DNA from: Oscillatoria sp. HE19RPO
GTDB taxonomy: Bacteria > Cyanobacteriota > Cyanobacteriia > Cyanobacteriales > Laspinemataceae
Reading direction: 5' to 3'
NCBI RefSeq assembly: GCF_024220515.1
Contig: NZ_JAMXOT010000065.1
Span: 1-40,161 of the forward strand
DNA: 40,161 nt
Shown: piece after piece, positions 10,388-37,084 of the stretch
Numbering within the stretch: the stretch's first letter is position 1
Layout of the letters: each line of letters starts with the position of its first letter
Position numbers and translations under genes: made by a program
Notes under the pieces: model-generated
What the model was told of the DNA's origin: nothing
Database searches by the model: none
What the model saw: only the letters and a program-made list of their open reading frames with translations

Positions 10388-10575
10388 ATACGGAATCCGG
10401 TTGGAATCGGTCTGTAAAAACCCACAGGCTCAAGCCCGGAGGCTACAGGCACAAAGCCTGTCCTGAGCTCCGTCGAAGCCTGTCCTGAGTCCTGAGCTCC
10501 GTCGAAGGGGGTCGAAGGGGGCCACCGGGCGCGGGCTAAAAGCGAAAACCGACTTTTACCAACCGGATTTGGTAT
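10388..10575. repeat. MITE-like element, 188 bp, with 17-bp imperfect terminal inverted repeats
   Basis: The left end ATACGGAATCCGGTTGG matches the reverse complement of the right end (ATACCAAATCCGGTTGG) at 15 of 17 positions. Inside are two copies of TCCTGAGCTCCGTCGAAG and a GTCGAAGGGG doublet. The element lies immediately before the WD40 fragment, as if inserted in that gene. No clear target duplication is visible and there is no coding capacity. Confidence 0.45.
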
Positions 10576-10801: not shown

Positions 10802-10915
10802 ATGAAGAATCTTCTGAGCTATATAACCGCAACTCGCAACAAACAGGTCATGAGCCAGAGGATTCAGTATGGAAAAAACGAGAAATACCAGAAATACCGT
10901 TGTTTTATGGGGTGA
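10802..10915 (+). CDS. Possible leader ORF (37 aa) overlapping the ABC-F start
   Basis: ATG at 10802 opens a frame MKNLLSYITATRNKQVMSQ that runs 47 bp past the ABC-F start codon in another frame. Antibiotic-resistance ABC-F genes are often controlled by translated leaders. There is no strong ribosome site before this ATG, so it may be chance. Confidence 0.2.
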   Translation: MKNLLSYITATRNKQVMSQRIQYGKNEKYQKYRCFMG

Positions 10916-12491
10916 GAATTTAGCCTACACCGTTGAGCAAACCCGCACCCTGTTTTCCGGGGTGAATGTGACAGTGGAACAAGACGATCGCATTGCCTTA
11001 GTGGGCTCAAACGGCAGCGGTAAGTCTACCCTGATGCAGCTCTTAGCCGGACAGATTCAAACCCATCGGGGTTCTCTGGTGCGTCGAGGTTCTATCTATT
11101 ACTTGCCCCAAGTCGGCACCCTGAGCCCAATCCAGCAAGAACAGACCATTTTTCAGTTCCTCAGCGCCCTGGATGAGGAATGGTGGCGCATTGAGGAGCT
11201 TTTAGGGAGTCAATTCAATACCCATTGTGACTTATCTTTGCCTCTGCACCGCTTGAGTGGGGGAGAATTAACCAAGCTGTTTCTCTCCGTAGGTTTAGCC
11301 CAAACGCCGGATGTTTTGCTGTTGGATGAACCTACCAATCACCTTGATTTACTCACCTTAGAGAGTCTGCGCGCCAGTCTGGAGCAATTTCCCGGGGCTT
11401 TTGTTATTGTTTCCCATAAGCCCTTTTTTCTCGATCGGGTGGTGACAACAACTTGGGAATTAACGCCCCAAGGGGTGAATGTTTATGGGGGCGATTATTC
11501 CTTTTATCGAGAACAGAAACGGATTGCTCTAGCGGCTGCAAGGCGATCGCATGAAGTCGCCAAAAAAGCCTTAAAACGCGCTCAAATCACCGCCCTCGCT
11601 GAACAAAAACGAGCCGCACAATCTCAGAAACGGGGTGAACAAAAAGCCGAGAGTGGCAGTATGGGTAAGATGGCAAAACGCTATTTTGCCAATCGCGCTT
11701 CCTCCACCGCAGGCAAAGCGGCGGAACAAAATGAGGCTATCCTTGCTCAAGCCTCACAAAAGGTAGCTGAGACAAAAATTAAAACCGTCAAAGCAACGAA
11801 TATCCAACTGGAAGAGAAAAGTTTGAAACGGAAAACTCTGGTTGAGATTGACAATGCCTTGCTTAAAGTAGGCGATCGCCTGTTAATCGAGAATTTTCGG
11901 TTGCATCTGGGTTCGGGCGATCGCATCGTCATCGCCGGTCCCAATGGTTCTGGAAAATCCACCCTGATTAAAGCCCTGTTTAACCCCGACGGGGTGGGCA
12001 TTTTAGAAGCAGAGCAAATGCGACTCGCCCCAGCCATGACGGTGGTTTATCTCGACCAAAGCTATGGATTTGTGAATCGTCAGCAAACGATTTTAGAAAA
12101 TATGCAGTCCGCTAATCCCCAGTTATCCTATCAACTGTTACGGCAACAGTTAGGGCATTTTCTGTTCTTGAACGATGATGTGTATAAGTCGGCGGCAGTG
12201 TTAAGCGGGGGAGAGTTAGCCCGATTAGCGATCGCCATGATCAGTATTTCCGAAATTGATTTACTGATTCTCGATGAACCCACCAACAATTTAGACATTG
12301 AAACCGTCGAACAAATGATTCAAGCAATTAATGACTATCAAGGCGCAATCTGGGTAATTTCCCATGATTTGGACTTTTTGAGCCAAATCCAAATTACTCA
12401 AGCCTTTAAACTTAAGGACAAATCCTTACAACCCACTACATTTTTACCCCAAGATACCGAGGCTTATTATCAGGAATTACTCTATTCTTAG
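10869..12491 (+). CDS. ABC-F family ATPase, ribosomal-protection type (540 aa)
   Basis: Two ABC cassettes sit in one chain without membrane segments. The first has Walker A GSNGSGKST (46-54), signature LSGGE (129-133) and LLLDEPTNHLD (150-160). The second has Walker A GPNGSGKST (357-365), LSGGELARLA and LILDEPTNNLD. Between them is a long basic, helical linker (about 210-320), the P-site tRNA-interaction motif region of ABC-F proteins. The family binds the ribosomal E site; some members protect from antibiotics and others rescue stalled ribosomes. The length and long linker resemble the resistance type, but drug specificity cannot be predicted. AGAGG lies 8 bp before the ATG. Confidence 0.88.
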   Translation: MEKTRNTRNTVVLWGENLAYTVEQTRTLFSGVNVTVEQDDRIALVGSNGSGKSTLMQLLAGQIQTHRGSLVRRGSIYYLPQVGTLSPIQQEQTIFQFLSALDEEWWRIEELLGSQFNTHCDLSLPLHRLSGGELTKLFLSVGLAQTPDVLLLDEPTNHLDLLTLESLRASLEQFPGAFVIVSHKPFFLDRVVTTTWELTPQGVNVYGGDYSFYREQKRIALAAARRSHEVAKKALKRAQITALAEQKRAAQSQKRGEQKAESGSMGKMAKRYFANRASSTAGKAAEQNEAILAQASQKVAETKIKTVKATNIQLEEKSLKRKTLVEIDNALLKVGDRLLIENFRLHLGSGDRIVIAGPNGSGKSTLIKALFNPDGVGILEAEQMRLAPAMTVVYLDQSYGFVNRQQTILENMQSANPQLSYQLLRQQLGHFLFLNDDVYKSAAVLSGGELARLAIAMISISEIDLLILDEPTNNLDIETVEQMIQAINDYQGAIWVISHDLDFLSQIQITQAFKLKDKSLQPTTFLPQDTEAYYQELLYS

Positions 12492-12636: not shown

Positions 12637-13320
12637 CTACGATTCCGGCTCAATTCCCAACGCCCGCAACTGCGCCGCTAACCGTTCCGCCCGTTCGCGT
12701 TCTGCTGCTGCTGCCTCCCGCGCTGCCGATCGCTCTTGCTCCCGTTCAATCGTCGTCAGGAATCTTTCCCCATCGGGGCGGTAAATTGTCAAAGTTTCGG
12801 GAGTGAACTCGAAGCGAATCCCTAAACGGGGGCTAGTCCATTGGGCGATCGCCTCAATCGTCTGAAATTCCCCCTCCACTCGCTGAAGACCGACAAAATC
12901 ATGATGATCAGGGTCATAAATATAGTATTCCTCCACCCCATAGCGTTGATAAAATTGCTGTTTATTCACCATTGCCTGGAGGCGATTTCCCGGCGAAAGA
13001 ATCTCAAACACGACCTGGGGAGCAATATTTCCCTCTTCCCACTGGCGATAGGAACCGCGATTCTCCTGCGGAGACGCTTCGCGATCGCCCTTGGGCCGAC
13101 CAAACACCACAAACACATCAGGTGCCACCCGAATCTTCGGCTCCCCCTCCACGGGATACCAGAGCAGATCCCCCGCCACAAACACATCGGGCTGATCCGC
13201 AAAGCAGCATTCTAAATTTTCCTTAATCAGGACAATCCATTGGAACTGGCGCGTATTGTGTGCGATCGGTTGACCATCAGAATCGGGATAGAGAACAGGG
13301 CGATGAACGGAAAGAGTCAT
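12637..13320 (-). CDS. Uma2 family endonuclease (227 aa)
   Basis: The PD-(D/E)xK fold of Uma2 (DUF820) is visible as RVAPDVFVVFGRP, QVVFEILSPGN and YGVEEYYIYDPD, in the family order. The C-terminus is a charged coiled-coil-like tail rich in RERAAAAERERAERLAAQLR, common in cyanobacterial Uma2 proteins. The family is greatly expanded in cyanobacteria; the target is unknown. The gene is transcribed away from hicAB. Confidence 0.88.
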   Translation of the reverse strand: MTLSVHRPVLYPDSDGQPIAHNTRQFQWIVLIKENLECCFADQPDVFVAGDLLWYPVEGEPKIRVAPDVFVVFGRPKGDREASPQENRGSYRQWEEGNIAPQVVFEILSPGNRLQAMVNKQQFYQRYGVEEYYIYDPDHHDFVGLQRVEGEFQTIEAIAQWTSPRLGIRFEFTPETLTIYRPDGERFLTTIEREQERSAAREAAAAERERAERLAAQLRALGIEPES

Positions 13321-13416: not shown

Positions 13417-13641
13417 ATGCCCAGGAAGATTCGAGAGTTGAAAGCTCAAATTGCACGGTACGGATTTGTTTACTTGCCTAAGCGCGGCAAGGGCAGCCAT
13501 GAGCGTTGGCGACATCCTCTGATTGGAAAAACACTGACAATTCCAGGTCAGAATGGAGATGATGTGCCACTTTACCTAGAAAAACAACTGGAAAAACTAC
13601 TGACTGAATTAGAAGAGTTGAAAGAGGAGGGGGATTCATGA
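13417..13641 (+). CDS. hicA: HicA-type toxin (mRNA interferase, 74 aa)
   Basis: The short basic protein has the HicA double-stranded RNA-binding fold with the catalytic-histidine segment KRGKGSHERWRHP, followed by a strand with TLTIPGQNGDDVP. HicA cleaves mRNA when free of its antitoxin. Its stop overlaps the start of the next gene by four bases (ATGA), the usual hicAB arrangement. The gene has a longer than usual acidic C-terminal helix. Confidence 0.87.
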   Translation: MPRKIRELKAQIARYGFVYLPKRGKGSHERWRHPLIGKTLTIPGQNGDDVPLYLEKQLEKLLTELEELKEEGDS

Positions 13642-13856
13642 ATCGATACAGCATGATTGTTCAATGGTCTGATGAAGATCAACTTTTCCTAGTCACAATT
13701 CCCGAGTTTTCTGATTTAGTCGTGATGCCTTGTACTCACGGAAAAACTCGGGAGGAAGCTATCCGCAATGGGGAAGAAGTGATTGAAATGTATCTAGAGG
13801 CTTGGCAAGCCGAAGGTGAAGTGATTCCTGAAGCGAAAACACTGGAGGTGGCTTGA
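13638..13856 (+). CDS. hicB: HicB-type antitoxin (72 aa)
   Basis: The N-terminal partial RNase-H-like fold carries MIVQWSDEDQLFLVTIPEF and the family-typical GKTREEAIRNGEEVIEMYLE. It lacks a separate DNA-binding domain, so it is the short form of HicB. It overlaps hicA by four bases, which implies coupled translation. HicB neutralises HicA and usually represses the operon. Confidence 0.88.
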   Translation: MNRYSMIVQWSDEDQLFLVTIPEFSDLVVMPCTHGKTREEAIRNGEEVIEMYLEAWQAEGEVIPEAKTLEVA

Positions 13857-14089
13857 TGCTTTTGGTGATTCCGACTGCATAACCACGCCCACCGGACGGT
13901 TAAAAGTTCATCGGTTGAGAGTTCGCGGATGTCTGCGGGGGGTGATGGGCAAGGTTGGGTGTAGGAGGGGCGTGCGCTTTTCAAGTAGGCATCGCTTCGC
14001 TATGGCGTCTGCGCGATCGCCTCTTGCTCCCTGACTTTGTTACAAATCATTTAGTATTGTTATGTTTGCAGTTCATAAGCGCGCTACTC

Positions 14090-14098
14090 TGTTATAAT
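14090..14098 (+). promoter_or_regulatory. Extended -10 promoter for the winged-helix/ATPase operon
   Basis: TGTTATAAT is a perfect extended -10 box (TGnTATAAT). It lies 52 bp upstream of the ATG at 14151. No good -35 is found at normal spacing, which is acceptable for extended -10 promoters. The preceding gap (13857-14089) holds one HIP1 octamer and nothing else that I recognise. Confidence 0.5.
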
Positions 14099-14150
14099 CC
14101 GAATTGTTGTGGTTTGTCTCAGCCTAAAATACACATGGGAGTCTAGTTTC

Positions 14151-14738
14151 ATGGCCAACTTATCCACTGGAGAGTTGCTCTATCTTTTGTATGCTTTTGC
14201 TTATACTGAAGAAGAACAGAAGTCTGTGACCCAGGGTACGGTGAAAAGATATCTCCCAAAGTCTTATCGTACTGAAGCCGGGACTATCTGCGACTCCTTA
14301 CTTGAACAAAAATTTTTAGAATCACCTAAATTGCGGCGCGTGACCGTTTCCCTCTCGGGAAAAGAGGCATTAGTTACAAATCTTCAAACTACAGACTATG
14401 AGTTCACGACGGTCAAAGGAAGTCGAGTTGTCAATGCTCTCATGGCTTGCCTGAAACTTACGGCGTCTTTTGGTAAAATGGGAGAAATCAGTCAGGAGAA
14501 AGATTTAGGCTTTGAAGAATTTCTGGAGAAATTCAAGAAATTTTATTTTGAAGAACGGAAACGTCAGTCTATGACCGGAACTTATGTGATGCGGGAAAAA
14601 GAGATTCTCCAGAAATTTTCTCAGGAGTATAATATCTCAGGAGACTTGCTTCAGCGTTATTACAAGCGTTTACAGGAAGAGGGTTTAATTTCAGTCGTGC
14701 AAGGACGAGAAGATAAAAATCTTCAGTGGGTTGAGTAG
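14151..14738 (+). CDS. Winged-helix DNA-binding-like protein of unknown function (195 aa), operon with the ATPase
   Basis: I place the start at ATG 14151 because GGAG lies 9 bp upstream. An earlier in-frame ATG at 14109 would add 14 residues. Residues 1-75 look like a winged helix: three helices (ELLYLLYAFAYTEEE, then VKRYLPKSYRTEAGTICDSLLEQKFL) followed by a two-strand wing ending RRVTVSLSGKEAL. A second helix-turn-helix-like segment lies at the C-terminus (DLLQRYYKRLQEEGLISVVQ). Between them is a charged helical stretch. I do not recognise a named family. It is 16 bp upstream of the large ATPase gene and shares its promoter, so it is probably its regulator or DNA-recognition partner. The DNA is AT-richer than its neighbours and free of HIP1 sites. 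Confidence 0.7.
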   Translation: MANLSTGELLYLLYAFAYTEEEQKSVTQGTVKRYLPKSYRTEAGTICDSLLEQKFLESPKLRRVTVSLSGKEALVTNLQTTDYEFTTVKGSRVVNALMACLKLTASFGKMGEISQEKDLGFEEFLEKFKKFYFEERKRQSMTGTYVMREKEILQKFSQEYNISGDLLQRYYKRLQEEGLISVVQGREDKNLQWVE

Positions 14739-14754
14739 TTTTTGATGATCAATC

Positions 14755-16731
14755 ATGCCAGAAAATGCCGGACAAAAACAAGCGATTACCGATTTTCTGC
14801 TTCGAGTCAAAAAGGGTTTAAAGCTCGTCGAGGAAATTTGGATTGACCGTGAAGTAAAGCCGAGAGGTTCAGAAGGGCCTGAAGGTAACCAAGCTGAGAG
14901 TCTATCGGGTAATTCCATTAACACGATTACTGAACTCATTGAAGATGACTTGAAATTTTGTTTTCAGCAACAAAAATTTATCTTTAGAATGATTGCAGCA
15001 GACTCGGGAAGTGGAAAAACTGCTATTTTGGATTATCTGCATCAAAGACTGGAGGCAAACCGCTCCGATACAGGTAGAATAATTATTCCAATTTCTGCTA
15101 ATTTAAACAGCTTGCTCACCAATCCTAGCGCCGAGGGATTTAGTCGCGAATTTTATTTGCATTTGATTAGTGAAGTCTTTAAGATTGCATTAGTTGAGAC
15201 TCCAGATCCTAGTTTTAAGCAATCAGCGGTTCTTTGCTTGGAAGAATTATTTTTTGATGAGGCAAGCCGTGTTAATCTCATCATAACTTCCAAAAAAAGT
15301 AGCCAGGTCAAAACTAAACTAAAGCAATTATTAATTGACTCAGGTTGTGACCTGATTGAAACGTTCCTGGAAATAGTCCAAAGCTTCAAAAATCAAGGAT
15401 TTGGCTTATTTTTCTTGATTGATGAGTTGGATTCACTTTATCAAAGTGAGAGGTCTAAAGATGCCGTTAATACCTTTCGGCATTTAATTAATGAAATTGA
15501 AGACTCCTATCAAGGGAGTTTACCTTTAGGCTTGTATATTTCGGGTTTATCTGATGATGTTCAAAAATTTATCCAGGAACATGAGGCTTTAAAAAGTCGA
15601 GTTTATCCCGGAGAGATCCGATTAGTTAGATTTAGAAACAAAGAGTGTGAAGAAATACGCTCTAAAATCGACAACCGGCTTTATAGTGCCTATCAAGGCT
15701 ATAAAGATTTCGCCGAATTTCAGAAAGAGGTTCAGAGCATTGACTTAAAAGCAGGAACAGATTTTAATAGTTTGCGAGAATTTTGCCAGCGATATGGCAG
15801 TCAAGTTTTAGAGGTTCATCAACGCTATTTCAAGCATCACGACAAATCTTTTAATCAATTTGAGTTTCAGTCACGAGCTAAACTAGAAGAACTCTGTATT
15901 CAACAATGGAGTCAAAAATTAGGGAACGCACCGAGTCCGATTACTGGTACATTCAATCACCAGGGTCATCAACAATGGAAACGGCTTTCTGGTAAACAAG
16001 GCTATGAGCTAATCGTAGCACAAACCACAACGAATTTAGAGGGTCACAATTTTGATGGTTATGCCGAATTAAGGCATAATGGCGAGGTGATTGCCAAAGC
16101 CTTTGGTGAAGCCAAAAATTATGAGCTTTTAACCAGTCACTTTACAACATTTAGGGACTGGTTAGCTGACGTTCGGTTTGATGGAAAAAAATCTATTCCT
16201 GATTTAGCTTACTTATTCGCTCCGGGTTGTCCCAATCTTCTTGAACTGAAAATTAAAAATACTGAGATTGAGTTTCACCTTTTACCGAAGGAAACGGAAA
16301 GACAATTAGAAAATTCAGCGGATAGCTCTGAAGTTTTAAAACCGCTAGAAACCAAGAATTTTAACAATTTAACTCAGACTGACTCTGTTGTATCAACGCC
16401 TTCCCATCCCCAGGGTTTTCCAACAGATCCAGAAGCTCCAAAAGAGATCAACTCGCTAGACGTGACCCCATCGGAGGTAGAAGCTGTTCCAAAAATTCCA
16501 GAAACCTTTACCAAAAAGTCTGGTGTTAATATTAATACAGCCAGCGTTGGTGATCTGATAAAAGCATTTAAGGGTAGCGGGATGCGTAACAATACAATTC
16601 AACGGATTACCGACCGACGTGATGAAATCACCTATAAAAACTTAGATGATTTATTGCAGGGCTTGGGTTCAACCAACAAGGTGAAAAACAAACTTCAGCA
16701 AAAGCTAGATAATGGAGAAATTTACTTTTAG
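14755..16731 (+). CDS. ATPase fused to a PD-(D/E)xK-like segment and a helix-hairpin-helix tail (658 aa)
   Basis: Residues 75-285 are an AAA/ORC-like P-loop ATPase. Walker A is AADSGSGKT (81-89) and Walker B is GLFFLIDELDSLY (217-229). Residues about 415-510 carry a nuclease-like pattern: D434 in HNFDGYAEL and E452-x-K454 in FGEAKNYE, embedded in predicted strands. This is consistent with a restriction-endonuclease fold but not proven. Residues 515-588 are a low-complexity linker. Residues 590-650 (VNINTASVGDLIKAFKGSG) match a ComEA-like helix-hairpin-helix DNA-binding unit. The combination suggests an ATP-driven DNA-processing or restriction protein working with the upstream winged-helix protein. 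I do not recognise this fusion from any named defence system. There are no HIP1 octamers in the operon, which suggests transfer. Confidence 0.75.
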   Translation: MPENAGQKQAITDFLLRVKKGLKLVEEIWIDREVKPRGSEGPEGNQAESLSGNSINTITELIEDDLKFCFQQQKFIFRMIAADSGSGKTAILDYLHQRLEANRSDTGRIIIPISANLNSLLTNPSAEGFSREFYLHLISEVFKIALVETPDPSFKQSAVLCLEELFFDEASRVNLIITSKKSSQVKTKLKQLLIDSGCDLIETFLEIVQSFKNQGFGLFFLIDELDSLYQSERSKDAVNTFRHLINEIEDSYQGSLPLGLYISGLSDDVQKFIQEHEALKSRVYPGEIRLVRFRNKECEEIRSKIDNRLYSAYQGYKDFAEFQKEVQSIDLKAGTDFNSLREFCQRYGSQVLEVHQRYFKHHDKSFNQFEFQSRAKLEELCIQQWSQKLGNAPSPITGTFNHQGHQQWKRLSGKQGYELIVAQTTTNLEGHNFDGYAELRHNGEVIAKAFGEAKNYELLTSHFTTFRDWLADVRFDGKKSIPDLAYLFAPGCPNLLELKIKNTEIEFHLLPKETERQLENSADSSEVLKPLETKNFNNLTQTDSVVSTPSHPQGFPTDPEAPKEINSLDVTPSEVEAVPKIPETFTKKSGVNINTASVGDLIKAFKGSGMRNNTIQRITDRRDEITYKNLDDLLQGLGSTNKVKNKLQQKLDNGEIYF

Positions 16732-16801
16732 TGCTAAGGGGATGAACTGCTTCTCCTGGGTGAACCGGAACTATTAAACTCCCTTTTAAACTGTCTTTTG
16801 T

Positions 16802-17821
16802 TTAAGTAGCGATCGCTCGGTTGCTGGTATTCTCATTACTTGCGCCAATTAAAACTGGATTTTTCCCTAAGTGATAAGCGGATTTGAGATAACCAGGGTC
16901 AAGTTTCATCAGAGGCAAATCATGCTCTTTTAGAACGGTCTGAATCCGATCGCAGGCTTCAGGAAGCTGATAAAAGGGGATTCCAGGAAAAGCGTGATGA
17001 ATAGCATGATAAGGCAATCCTCCCATTAACCATCCGATCAGGGGATGGGTGGCTATATTTCGTCCGGCATAGAGTTGGGTGAGGTGAGGGGTGTTCGATG
17101 TTCCCCACAAGCCATAATGTTCTATATGGTCTCGGGTTTGCATGACAAGTCCGATCGCCCGTTCTAAAATCAGCCATAACAAAAGATAATGCAGCACTTT
17201 TCCCTGTAGATAAGCGCCGGTGAATAACAAACTGTGAATGCTCAGGCTGCCGAGAATATCCCGGGTTAATTGTTGTCGCAGTCGGGGAATTTGTTCTTGG
17301 AATTGGAGTCCTTTGAGGAGGGTTTTGAGGATGAGTCCGATGCCGCCAAAGATGGCAATATCGATCGCCCATTGGTGGCGAATATAGAATTGCACCACCG
17401 GATGAGCTTCTTGATACTCTTGTTCAGTCCATTGCACTCGTTCCGGGTCCCGCAGATTGATGCCATTCCAGGCATGATGCCAGGGATGCAGGGTGGCATA
17501 AACCCCGTAAGGCCAGAATAGGGGCCAACTGATGAGGTAGGGAAGCAGGCGATCGCAGTTTTTCCATCCGGTGAGGGTTTGATGGGTCATATCATGGGTG
17601 CAAATTAGCCAAAATCCACAGAGGAAGCCTCCGAGGGTGGCAGTGGTGGCGAACAGGATGGGGTTGGCGGTGTTCCAGGCTGTCAGGAGGAGGCTGAGAG
17701 TAAGGCATCCGAGGATAGTAAATCTCAGCAGTCCCGGGACTGGATTGATGGATTGTAACTCAGCGGTGACTTGGTGGAGGGATTGGGTTAGAGAAAGGGA
17801 TTGGGGGAGGCGATCGGTCAT
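16802..17821 (-). CDS. Fatty acid desaturase / carotenoid hydroxylase-like membrane di-iron protein (339 aa)
   Basis: Histidine boxes of the membrane di-iron superfamily are present: HDMTH (76-80), HPWHH (112-116), TRDHIEH and a final YHAIHH. Hydrophobic helices lie at about 30-70 and 90-110, with others between the boxes. The third box pattern and the ending AIHHAFPGIPFYQLP are typical of fatty acid desaturases. Substrate and regiospecificity are not resolved. The stop is 70 bp from the end of the ATPase gene, so the two are convergent. Confidence 0.82.
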   Translation of the reverse strand: MTDRLPQSLSLTQSLHQVTAELQSINPVPGLLRFTILGCLTLSLLLTAWNTANPILFATTATLGGFLCGFWLICTHDMTHQTLTGWKNCDRLLPYLISWPLFWPYGVYATLHPWHHAWNGINLRDPERVQWTEQEYQEAHPVVQFYIRHQWAIDIAIFGGIGLILKTLLKGLQFQEQIPRLRQQLTRDILGSLSIHSLLFTGAYLQGKVLHYLLLWLILERAIGLVMQTRDHIEHYGLWGTSNTPHLTQLYAGRNIATHPLIGWLMGGLPYHAIHHAFPGIPFYQLPEACDRIQTVLKEHDLPLMKLDPGYLKSAYHLGKNPVLIGASNENTSNRAIAT

Positions 17822-17877: not shown

Positions 17878-18002
17878 AACGACTGAAGTCGTTACTACGA
17901 ACGAAGATAAGAGAACGACTGAAGTCGTTACTACGAACTTAAGAGAACGACTGAAGTCGTTACTACGAACTTAAGAGAACGACTGAAGTCGTTACTACGA
18001 AC
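17878..18002. repeat. Array A: four copies of the AACGACTGAAGTCGTT hairpin repeat, one orientation
   Basis: Each unit is AACGACTGAAGTCGTT (6-bp stem AACGAC/GTCGTT, TGAA loop) followed by ACTACGAAC. The spacers are 7-10 bp, giving a period near 32. The array lies between the divergent desaturase and the 711-residue protein gene. Spacers are far too short and similar for CRISPR. Confidence 0.95.
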
Positions 18003-18041
18003 TAAAACGAAAGCGAGTGTTTAAAAGTCTCTCTTGTCTTG

Positions 18042-20327: not shown

Positions 20328-20399
20328 AAGGTTAAGGGGGAAAAGATTTAGATTCAGGATTCTGGGTTGACTAACCCACAACTTCAGTAGTTCTCCATG

Positions 20400-20765
20400 T
20401 TCGTAGTAACGACTTCAGTCGTTTCCGGGTTCGTAGTAACGACTTCAGTCGTTTCCATGTTCGTAGTAACGACTTCAGTCGTTTCCATGTTCGTAGTAAC
20501 GACTTCAGTCGTTTCCGGGTTCGTAGTAACGACTTCAGTCGTTTCCGGGTTCGTAGTAAGAATCCTGATGGGGGTGTGGGTTGTTGCGATCGCCGCCAAA
20601 TCTCTGCAAATACTACGAACATTAGAGAAGATAACGACTGAAGTCGTTACTACGAACTTTGATAAGATAACGACTGAAGTCGTTACTACGAACTTTGATA
20701 AGAGAACGACTGAAGTCGTTACTACGAACATGGAGGGGATAACGACTGAAGTCGTTACTACGAAC
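20400..20765. repeat. Array B: mirror-symmetric hairpin-repeat array (5 forward plus 4 reverse copies)
   Basis: Five full TTCGTAGT-AACGACTTCAGTCGTT units (period 30) and a sixth broken one occupy 20400-20550. A unique core follows, and then a broken unit and four full units in the opposite orientation (period about 36), ending at 20765. The array sits between the convergent 3' ends of the 711-residue protein gene and psbJ. Confidence 0.95.
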
Positions 20766-20810
20766 ATGGAGAAGATATTGGAAGGTGTGGGTTTTTTACG
20801 ACTAACTGCA

Positions 20811-20845
20811 ATAAAAATACCGCCTGCTGTAAAGTGGGCGGCATT
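20811..20845 (-). terminator. Terminator of the psbEFLJ operon
   Basis: On the minus strand AATGCCGCC pairs with GGCGGTATT (one G-U pair) around a 12-base loop, then TTTTTAT. It lies about 60 bp past the psbJ stop codon. The plus strand also has T residues after the stem, so it may work both ways. Confidence 0.75.
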
Positions 20846-20903
20846 TTTATTCCGGATGGTTAGATTTTAGAGGTTAACCTCTTGATATAGATAGAACCGA
20901 ACT

Positions 20904-23242: not shown

Positions 23243-23375
23243 CGAACTCAAAGGATGGGAAGGTCCAAACATTAAAACGATGTTAAAGATTATGACATAG
23301 TAGTGAACCGCTTTCCATTCATAACGGTTACAGCTTAAATCTTCCTTCGCGATCGGTCCCACCCAATTCTCCCCA

Positions 23376-23995
23376 GTTCGTAGTAACGACTTCAGGCGTT
23401 CTCCGGTGTTCGTAGTAACGACTTCAGTCGTTCTCCGGTGTTCGTAGTAACGACTTCAGTCGTTATCTTCAGTTCGTAGTAACGACTTCAGTCGTTGTCC
23501 CCAGTTCGTAGTAACAACTTCAGTCGTTCTCTTAGGTTCGTAGTAACGACTTCAGTCGTTCTCTTCAGTTCGTAGTAACGACTTCAGTCGTTCTCTTAGG
23601 TTCGTAGTAACGACTTCAGTCGTTTCCGGATGGATAATCACAGCGCCACTGCCCCGGTTGCTACAACCGGCAAGGGTTTAAACTCTCCTGAAAGGGTTGC
23701 TGGCGATCGCCATGTACACCGGATAACGACTGAAGTCGTTACTACAAACACCGGATAACGACTGAAGTCGTTACTACAAACACCGGATAACGACTGAAGT
23801 CGTTACTACGAACTGAAGATAACGACTGAAGTCGTTACTACAAACGCCGGATAACGACTGAAGTCGTTACTACAAACACCGGATAACGACTGAAGTCGTT
23901 ACTACAAACGCCGGATAACGACTGAAGGCGTTACTACGAACTTGGATAACGACTTCAGTCGTTGCTACGAACTTGGATAACGCCTGAAGACGAAC
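23376..23995. repeat. Array C: mirror-symmetric hairpin-repeat array (8 forward, 8-9 reverse copies)
   Basis: Eight GTTCGTAGTAACGACTTCAG units with a 32-bp period run from 23376 to about 23629. A unique core of about 90 bp containing one HIP1 site follows. Then eight units in reverse orientation and a decayed ninth run to 23995. Variants (GGCGTT, AACAACT, ACTACAAAC) show that the copies have drifted. The array lies between divergent rubA and ndhC. Confidence 0.95.
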
Positions 23996-36890: not shown

Positions 36891-36919
36891 GACTTGGGCT
36901 AACCGTCGGGCGATCGGAT

Positions 36920-37084
36920 AACGACTGAAGTCGTTACTACAAACTTAAGAAGATAACGACTGAAGTCGTTACTACAAACTTAAGAAGATAACGACTGAAG
37001 TCGTTACTACGAACTTCAGAAGATAACGACTGAAGTCGTTACTACAAACTTAAGACGATAACGACTGAAGTCGTTACTACGAAC
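36920..37084. repeat. Array D: five copies of the hairpin repeat, one orientation
   Basis: Five AACGACTGAAGTCGTT units with ACTAC(A/G)AAC tails and a 35-bp period precede the 3' end of the GNAT gene. The tail alternates between ACAAAC and ACGAAC. Confidence 0.95.

What the first reader, a model, noticed from the sequence alone, without database searches (positions are those of the whole stretch)
14090..16731. Candidate undescribed DNA-processing system: winged-helix protein plus ATPase/PD-(D/E)xK/HhH fusion
Two genes 16 bp apart share an extended -10 promoter. The second joins an ORC-like ATPase (Walker A 81-89, Walker B 217-229) to a nuclease-like D434...E452-x-K454 pattern and a ComEA-like helix-hairpin-helix tail. 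The first has two helix-turn-helix-like segments. I know no named antiphage or plasmid system with exactly this pair. The combination suggests ATP-controlled DNA recognition and cleavage.
Basis: partly seen in the sequence, partly recalled or inferred. Interest (0 to 1): 0.75.

Follow-up and report, generated by a model that had tools for sequence, protein, structure and literature searches.

The report
Cyanobacterial two-gene ATPase–nuclease cassette
This is a small two-gene DNA-handling machine, a DNA-binding partner plus an ATP-driven protein with a built-in DNA-cutting domain, that comes and goes between cyanobacterial genomes and probably attacks foreign DNA, though nobody has tested what it does.

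Summary
Window 14151-16731 (Laspinema, Cyanobacteria) carries two co-directional genes. The first (195 aa) is modelled as two winged helices. The second (658 aa) is an ORC/Cdc6-type AAA+ ATPase, then a domain with PD-(D/E)xK topology and motif, a disordered linker and a helix-hairpin-helix tail. The pair is real and conserved: about 40 cyanobacterial loci, the winged-helix gene directly upstream of every intact ATPase gene whose upstream DNA is available, correlated divergence, purifying selection. D434, E452 and K454 are invariant in a 34-sequence alignment. It is accessory: 2 of 8 Laspinema genomes, 34 of 391 genomes of the order, empty or otherwise occupied sites in sister genomes, decayed remnants. 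No PADLOC, NCBIfam or Pfam model names it. Domain combinations of this kind (ORC/Cdc6 ATPase plus REase plus wHTH) are already described in counter-invader systems, so it is a new variant of a known kind. A relative of its winged-helix protein heads a more widespread three-gene operon with a different ATPase and a DUF1802-Mrr nuclease, which supports a reader-ATPase-nuclease logic. Most likely it is an ATP-gated, two-component restriction-like nuclease against mobile DNA. Fold and motifs are shown; catalysis, the complex and defence are inferred.

The parts
14090..14098 (+). extended -10 element TGTTATAAT, putative promoter of the operon
   Evidence: read directly; conserved in G079; not listed by the consensus scan
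14137..14141 (+). GGGAG, putative ribosome-binding site of the winged-helix gene
   Evidence: read directly; GGAG kept in G079
14151..14738 (+). winged-helix partner gene, 195 aa, two winged helices (residues 6-80 and 121-195)
   Evidence: A2/A4 alignments, AlphaFold2 model pLDDT 85.5, MarR-type WH Z about 11 over residues 1-84
14755..16731 (+). ATPase-nuclease-HhH gene, 658 aa
14755..15834 (+). ORC/Cdc6-type AAA+ ATPase module, residues 1-360
   Evidence: Foldseek E 3.9e-5 to archaeal ORC2; VIA Z 17.0, 256 aligned, residues 7-360
14998..15021 (+). Walker A, residues 82-89 (ADSGSGKT)
   Evidence: G85, G87, K88, T89 invariant in 34 of 34
15406..15426 (+). Walker B, residues 218-224
   Evidence: D223 invariant, E224 at least 90%
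15844..16290 (+). PD-(D/E)xK-like nuclease domain, residues 364-512
   Evidence: alpha-beta-beta-beta-alpha-beta order in the model, pLDDT about 84-95 over residues 421-510; motif conservation
16054..16056 (+). D434, putative catalytic Asp
   Evidence: invariant in 34 of 34
16108..16116 (+). E452-A-K454, putative catalytic ExK (in GEAKNY)
   Evidence: invariant in 34 of 34
16303..16518 (+). disordered linker, residues 517-588
   Evidence: pLDDT below 50; dN/dS 0.66
16519..16728 (+). helix-hairpin-helix tail, residues 589-658
   Evidence: weak T2SSK/HHH_3/ComEA hits; replaced by WD40 in L095

Best explanation
A two-component, ATP-gated DNA nuclease that acts against incoming or mobile DNA. The ATPase would assemble on DNA with that partner, and its nucleotide state would position the fused PD-(D/E)xK domain to cut. 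The HhH on its flexible leash adds non-specific DNA grip and can be swapped. Shown: gene pair, predicted folds, motifs, co-inheritance, purifying selection, accessory distribution. Inferred: complex formation, DNA binding, cleavage, ATP gating, target choice and the defence role.
For: ORC/Cdc6 fold Z 17 over residues 7-360, aligned to 1w5t residues 7-279 of 394; TnsC, BrxC and RdrA are also among Foldseek hits. Invariant Walker and D/ExK residues. PD-(D/E)xK order of elements with D434 at the start of strand 435-441 and E452/K454 at the end of strand 444-453. WH gene directly upstream in 35 of 40 loci; the other five are contig ends or decayed remnants. Distance matrices of the two proteins correlate, r 0.84, 0 of 2000 permutations. 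Variable neighbours; 34 of 391 genomes of the order. Empty site in G144, a toxin-antitoxin-like locus in G203 and an IS-type transposase in G130 at the same spot. Remnants in L108 and L110. A distant homologue of the WH protein (profile E 4.9e-14, 147 columns) heads a three-gene operon with another P-loop ATPase and a DUF1802-Mrr_cat-like nuclease.
Against: No functional test. Neighbours are not clearly enriched in known defence genes. Absent from phage, plasmid and viral-contig collections. The nuclease fold rests on model topology and motif; no sequence family or solved structure confirms it. One member has lost the catalytic residues.
Confidence: 0.55

Rival explanations
1. A host DNA repair, recombination or DNA-uptake enzyme: the HhH and nuclease process junctions or imported strands and the ATPase loads it.
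For: HhH resembles ComEA/GspK-type motifs; chromosomal, not on phages or plasmids; syntenic within some clades.
Against: Patchy: 2 of 8 Laspinema, 34 of 391 in the order; decays to remnants; no recurrent repair or competence neighbour seen.
Confidence: 0.17
2. A toxin-antitoxin-like or self-maintaining module: the winged-helix protein represses or restrains a nuclease toxin.
For: Small repressor-sized first gene before an effector gene; sits next to a HicAB-like pair and in a spot that carries a VapBC-like locus in G203.
Against: A homologous WH family accompanies a different ATPase and nuclease as separate genes, which fits a reader or adaptor better; ATPase motifs are invariant.
Confidence: 0.13
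3. A TnsC-like transposition regulator with a TnsA-like nuclease, part of a transposon.
For: TnsC structures among the top structural matches (Z 13-15).
Against: No transposase recurs next to the pair; the structural likeness is shared by ORC-clade ATPases in general.
Confidence: 0.05

Closest known systems
ORC/Cdc6 ATPase systems with REase and wHTH, and the CR-type ATPase-REase proteins (PMC10853773; mentioned in PMC12839542)
   Same: ORC/CDC6-clade AAA+ combined with a C-terminal or associated REase and winged helices; mobile, predicted counter-invader role
   Different: Here two genes only, no HerA/FtsK found recurring next to it, winged helices in a separate partner, HhH tail, found only in Cyanobacteria so far; direct sequence homology to those proteins not tested
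BREX BrxC/BrxD ATPases
   Same: ORC/Cdc6-type ATPase; the window protein just reaches the Pfam BrxC_BrxD cut-off (22.2 bits); BrxC Z 12.8
   Different: The Pfam match covers residues 195-295 only; 658 aa with fused nuclease, no BREX gene set seen around it
Cyanobacterial WH + P-loop ATPase + DUF1802-Mrr three-gene operon (seen here, L168-L185)
   Same: Homologous winged-helix protein; same logic of reader, ATPase and PD-(D/E)xK nuclease
   Different: ATPases share only Walker A by profile; nucleases not alignable; separate nuclease gene; more widespread (DUF1802-Mrr protein in 110 of 245 genomes, though not always with WH and ATPase)
Mrr and other type IV restriction enzymes
   Same: PD-(D/E)xK nuclease with winged-helix DNA reader; 19 of 36 WH members hit Mrr_N weakly
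   Different: Reader and nuclease on separate proteins, AAA+ ATPase added; nuclease does not match Mrr_cat

Membership tests
ORC/Cdc6-clade AAA+ ATPases | AAA+ core with ORC/Cdc6 fold and Walker A/B | tested here: met
   Z 17.0 to 1w5t, 256 aligned, residues 7-360; Walker residues invariant
ORC/Cdc6-clade AAA+ ATPases | C-terminal winged-helix domain in the same chain (initiator-type ORC/Cdc6) | tested here: not met
   Residue 364 onward is the nuclease-like domain; ORC matches end at 360. Two winged helices are in the partner
PD-(D/E)xK nuclease superfamily | alpha-beta-beta-beta-alpha-beta core with D at the second core strand and ExK on the third | tested here: met
   Model secondary structure and motif positions
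PD-(D/E)xK nuclease superfamily | recognisable homology or fold match to a known member | tested here: inconclusive
BREX | PglZ, BrxX and the rest of the BREX gene set | tested here: not met
   Only WH and ATPase genes recur; neighbours vary; no PADLOC hit for either protein
HerA/FtsK-Orc capture systems (PMC10853773) | HerA/FtsK ATPase in the locus | tested here: inconclusive
   No third gene recurs beside the pair, but only 25 of 197 neighbour Pfam families were listed
ORC-REase (CR-type) proteins | CDC6/ORC1-clade NTPase with C-terminal REase | tested here: met
   Domain order met, with the nuclease fold resting on topology and motif
ORC-REase (CR-type) proteins | sequence relationship to the described proteins | not tested
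   Those sequences were not fetched
Tn7-like transposition (TnsC) | associated transposase | tested here: not met
   No transposase recurs beside the pair
Mrr / type IV restriction | Mrr_cat nuclease domain | tested here: not met
   No Mrr_cat hit for any of 34 members
Named defence systems in PADLOC 2.0 | match to any model | tested here: not met
   0 families for both proteins at E up to 1

The most novel reading that the evidence does not exclude
A cyanobacterial class of split ORC-type restriction machines in which one homologous winged-helix reader family works with interchangeable ATPase-nuclease engines: fused in this two-gene cassette, separate in the common WH-ATPase-DUF1802/Mrr operon.
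Probability: 0.35. Interest if true: 0.7.

Novelty: new variant of a known kind. Interest (0 to 1): 0.5.

Why it matters
If it works as proposed, it adds an unnamed, compact two-gene ATP-dependent restriction-like system to the Cyanobacteria, with genes small enough to clone and test. Its link to a much more common three-gene operon gives a comparison set for how an ORC-type ATPase is coupled to a DNA reader supplied in trans and to a nuclease.

Tried and rejected
Single-protein scan of genome contigs found nothing; the alignment scan found 40 loci. Plasmids, phages and viral contigs: no match. PDB by sequence: no useful match; serotransferrin hits of the nuclease profile are taken as chance. 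Viral fold library: only generic AAA ATPases. Profile comparison of the nuclease with the DUF1802-Mrr protein and of the two ATPases: nothing beyond Walker A. The link of the WH protein to Mrr_N is weak (37 columns) and is not claimed. Transposon reading rejected for lack of a transposase. No paper on DUF1802 function was found. Archaeal ATPase-DUF234 proteins were considered from memory and not tested.

Full report
What is there. The window lies in a Laspinema genome: its closest orthologue, in a genome of the same genus, is on a contig titled Laspinema sp. D2d. The genes are 16 bp apart here; in most other genomes the gap is 3 bp.

Folds. AlphaFold2 on alignments of homologues gave the 195-aa protein as two winged helices joined by long helices (pLDDT 85.5); the first matches MarR-type winged helices (Z about 11). 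The 658-aa protein (pLDDT 80.5) has an AAA+ part, residues 1-360, close to ORC/Cdc6 and TnsC (Foldseek 3.9e-5 to ORC2; Z 17.0). Residues 364-512 show a helix, three strands, helix, strand, helix, strand, with D434 at the start of one central strand and E452/K454 at the end of the next: the PD-(D/E)xK layout. Residues 517-588 are disordered and 589-658 form the HhH. The nuclease domain matches no Pfam family or solved structure by sequence, so its fold rests on topology, motif and conservation. Neither protein matches PADLOC.

Family. Searches found the ATPase in 34 of 391 genomes of the order, 8 of 386 in a phylum sample, and 40 loci in the species-level genome collection, all cyanobacterial by title. 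The winged-helix gene sits directly upstream in 35 of those 40; L093, L104 and L106 are cut by contig ends and L108 and L110 are remnants. Distances of the two proteins correlate (r 0.84, 0 of 2000 permutations). Nostoc mirabile holds two divergent copies. D434, E452 and K454 are invariant in 34 of 34; one divergent copy has lost them. In L095 a WD40 propeller replaces the HhH. The two Laspinema copies are under purifying selection, weakest in the linker.

Accessory locus. Of eight Laspinema genomes only the window genome and G079 have the pair. In G144 the ABC-F gene is followed directly by the desaturase, with none of the intervening DNA; in G203 the spot between the Uma2 gene and the desaturase holds a VapBC-like pair, in G130 an IS630-type transposase (the last two names are my reading of the translations). 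G079 carries the block 14013-16900 after a different gene, with about 100 bp of the desaturase end attached. This is a variable spot and the pair is one of its passengers.

A wider relative. The winged-helix profile matched 75 of 245 genomes. In 15 of 18 fetched loci of the distant group the homologue, about 230 aa, precedes a roughly 600-aa P-loop ATPase and a DUF1802 protein with a Mrr_cat-like D-ECK nuclease. The winged-helix families are homologous (E 4.9e-14 over 147 columns); ATPases and nucleases are not recognisably so. The DUF1802-Mrr protein is in 110 of 245 genomes, including Laspinema, where it stands without the other two in the loci looked at. So a related reader is paired with two different ATPase-nuclease engines.

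Mechanism. ORC proteins carry their own winged helix after the AAA+ part (established knowledge of the family); here that place is taken by the nuclease and the winged helices are in the partner. The simplest model is an ATPase assembly on DNA, recruited or selected by the winged-helix reader, whose nucleotide state licenses cleavage. Complex, binding, cleavage and gating are inferred. Defence against mobile DNA is the likeliest role because of the patchy, decaying, variable-site distribution and the domain company; neighbours do not clearly show a defence island.

Known or new. ORC/Cdc6 ATPases with REases and wHTH proteins are described as recurrent predicted counter-invader systems in PMC10853773, and REase fusions with CR-ATPases in PMC12839542. 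No description of this pair was found in the completed literature searches, which cover open-licence papers only. I call it a new variant of a known kind.

Noticed in passing
window 17878-18003; also 20381-20559, 20611-20777, 23367-23624, 23716-23989, 36917-37084: Tandem arrays of a 30-36 bp unit built on the palindrome AACGACTGAAGTCGTT plus ACTACRAAC; 113 matches in the own genome and dozens to over 100 in each sister genome; folds far better than shuffles (z -6.2); no Rfam match. ORFs at 20384-20870 are translations of these repeats.
   Followed up: partly
window about 10388-10468 and 10529-10575: Short dispersed repeats (about 80 and 47 bp) found at many places in Laspinema genomes.
   Followed up: no
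L168-L185, e.g. L174:7750-11766: Widespread cyanobacterial three-gene operon: winged helix, P-loop ATPase, DUF1802-Mrr_cat-like nuclease; not named in PADLOC or NCBIfam.
   Followed up: partly
window 13417-13856: HicA/HicB-like gene pair next to the cassette (naming from the translations; no NCBIfam match).
   Followed up: no
window 12637-13320: Uma2-like gene with weak PDC-S03 hits in PADLOC, shared with G130 and G203 at this variable spot.
   Followed up: partly
L095:8001-10451: Family member whose HhH tail is replaced by a WD40 propeller.
   Followed up: no
L060:9440-11629: Family member with intact Walker A but lost D, E and K of the nuclease motif.
   Followed up: no
window 10869-12491: ABC-F gene above the NCBIfam cut-off for ribosomal protection-like ABC-F proteins.
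   Followed up: no
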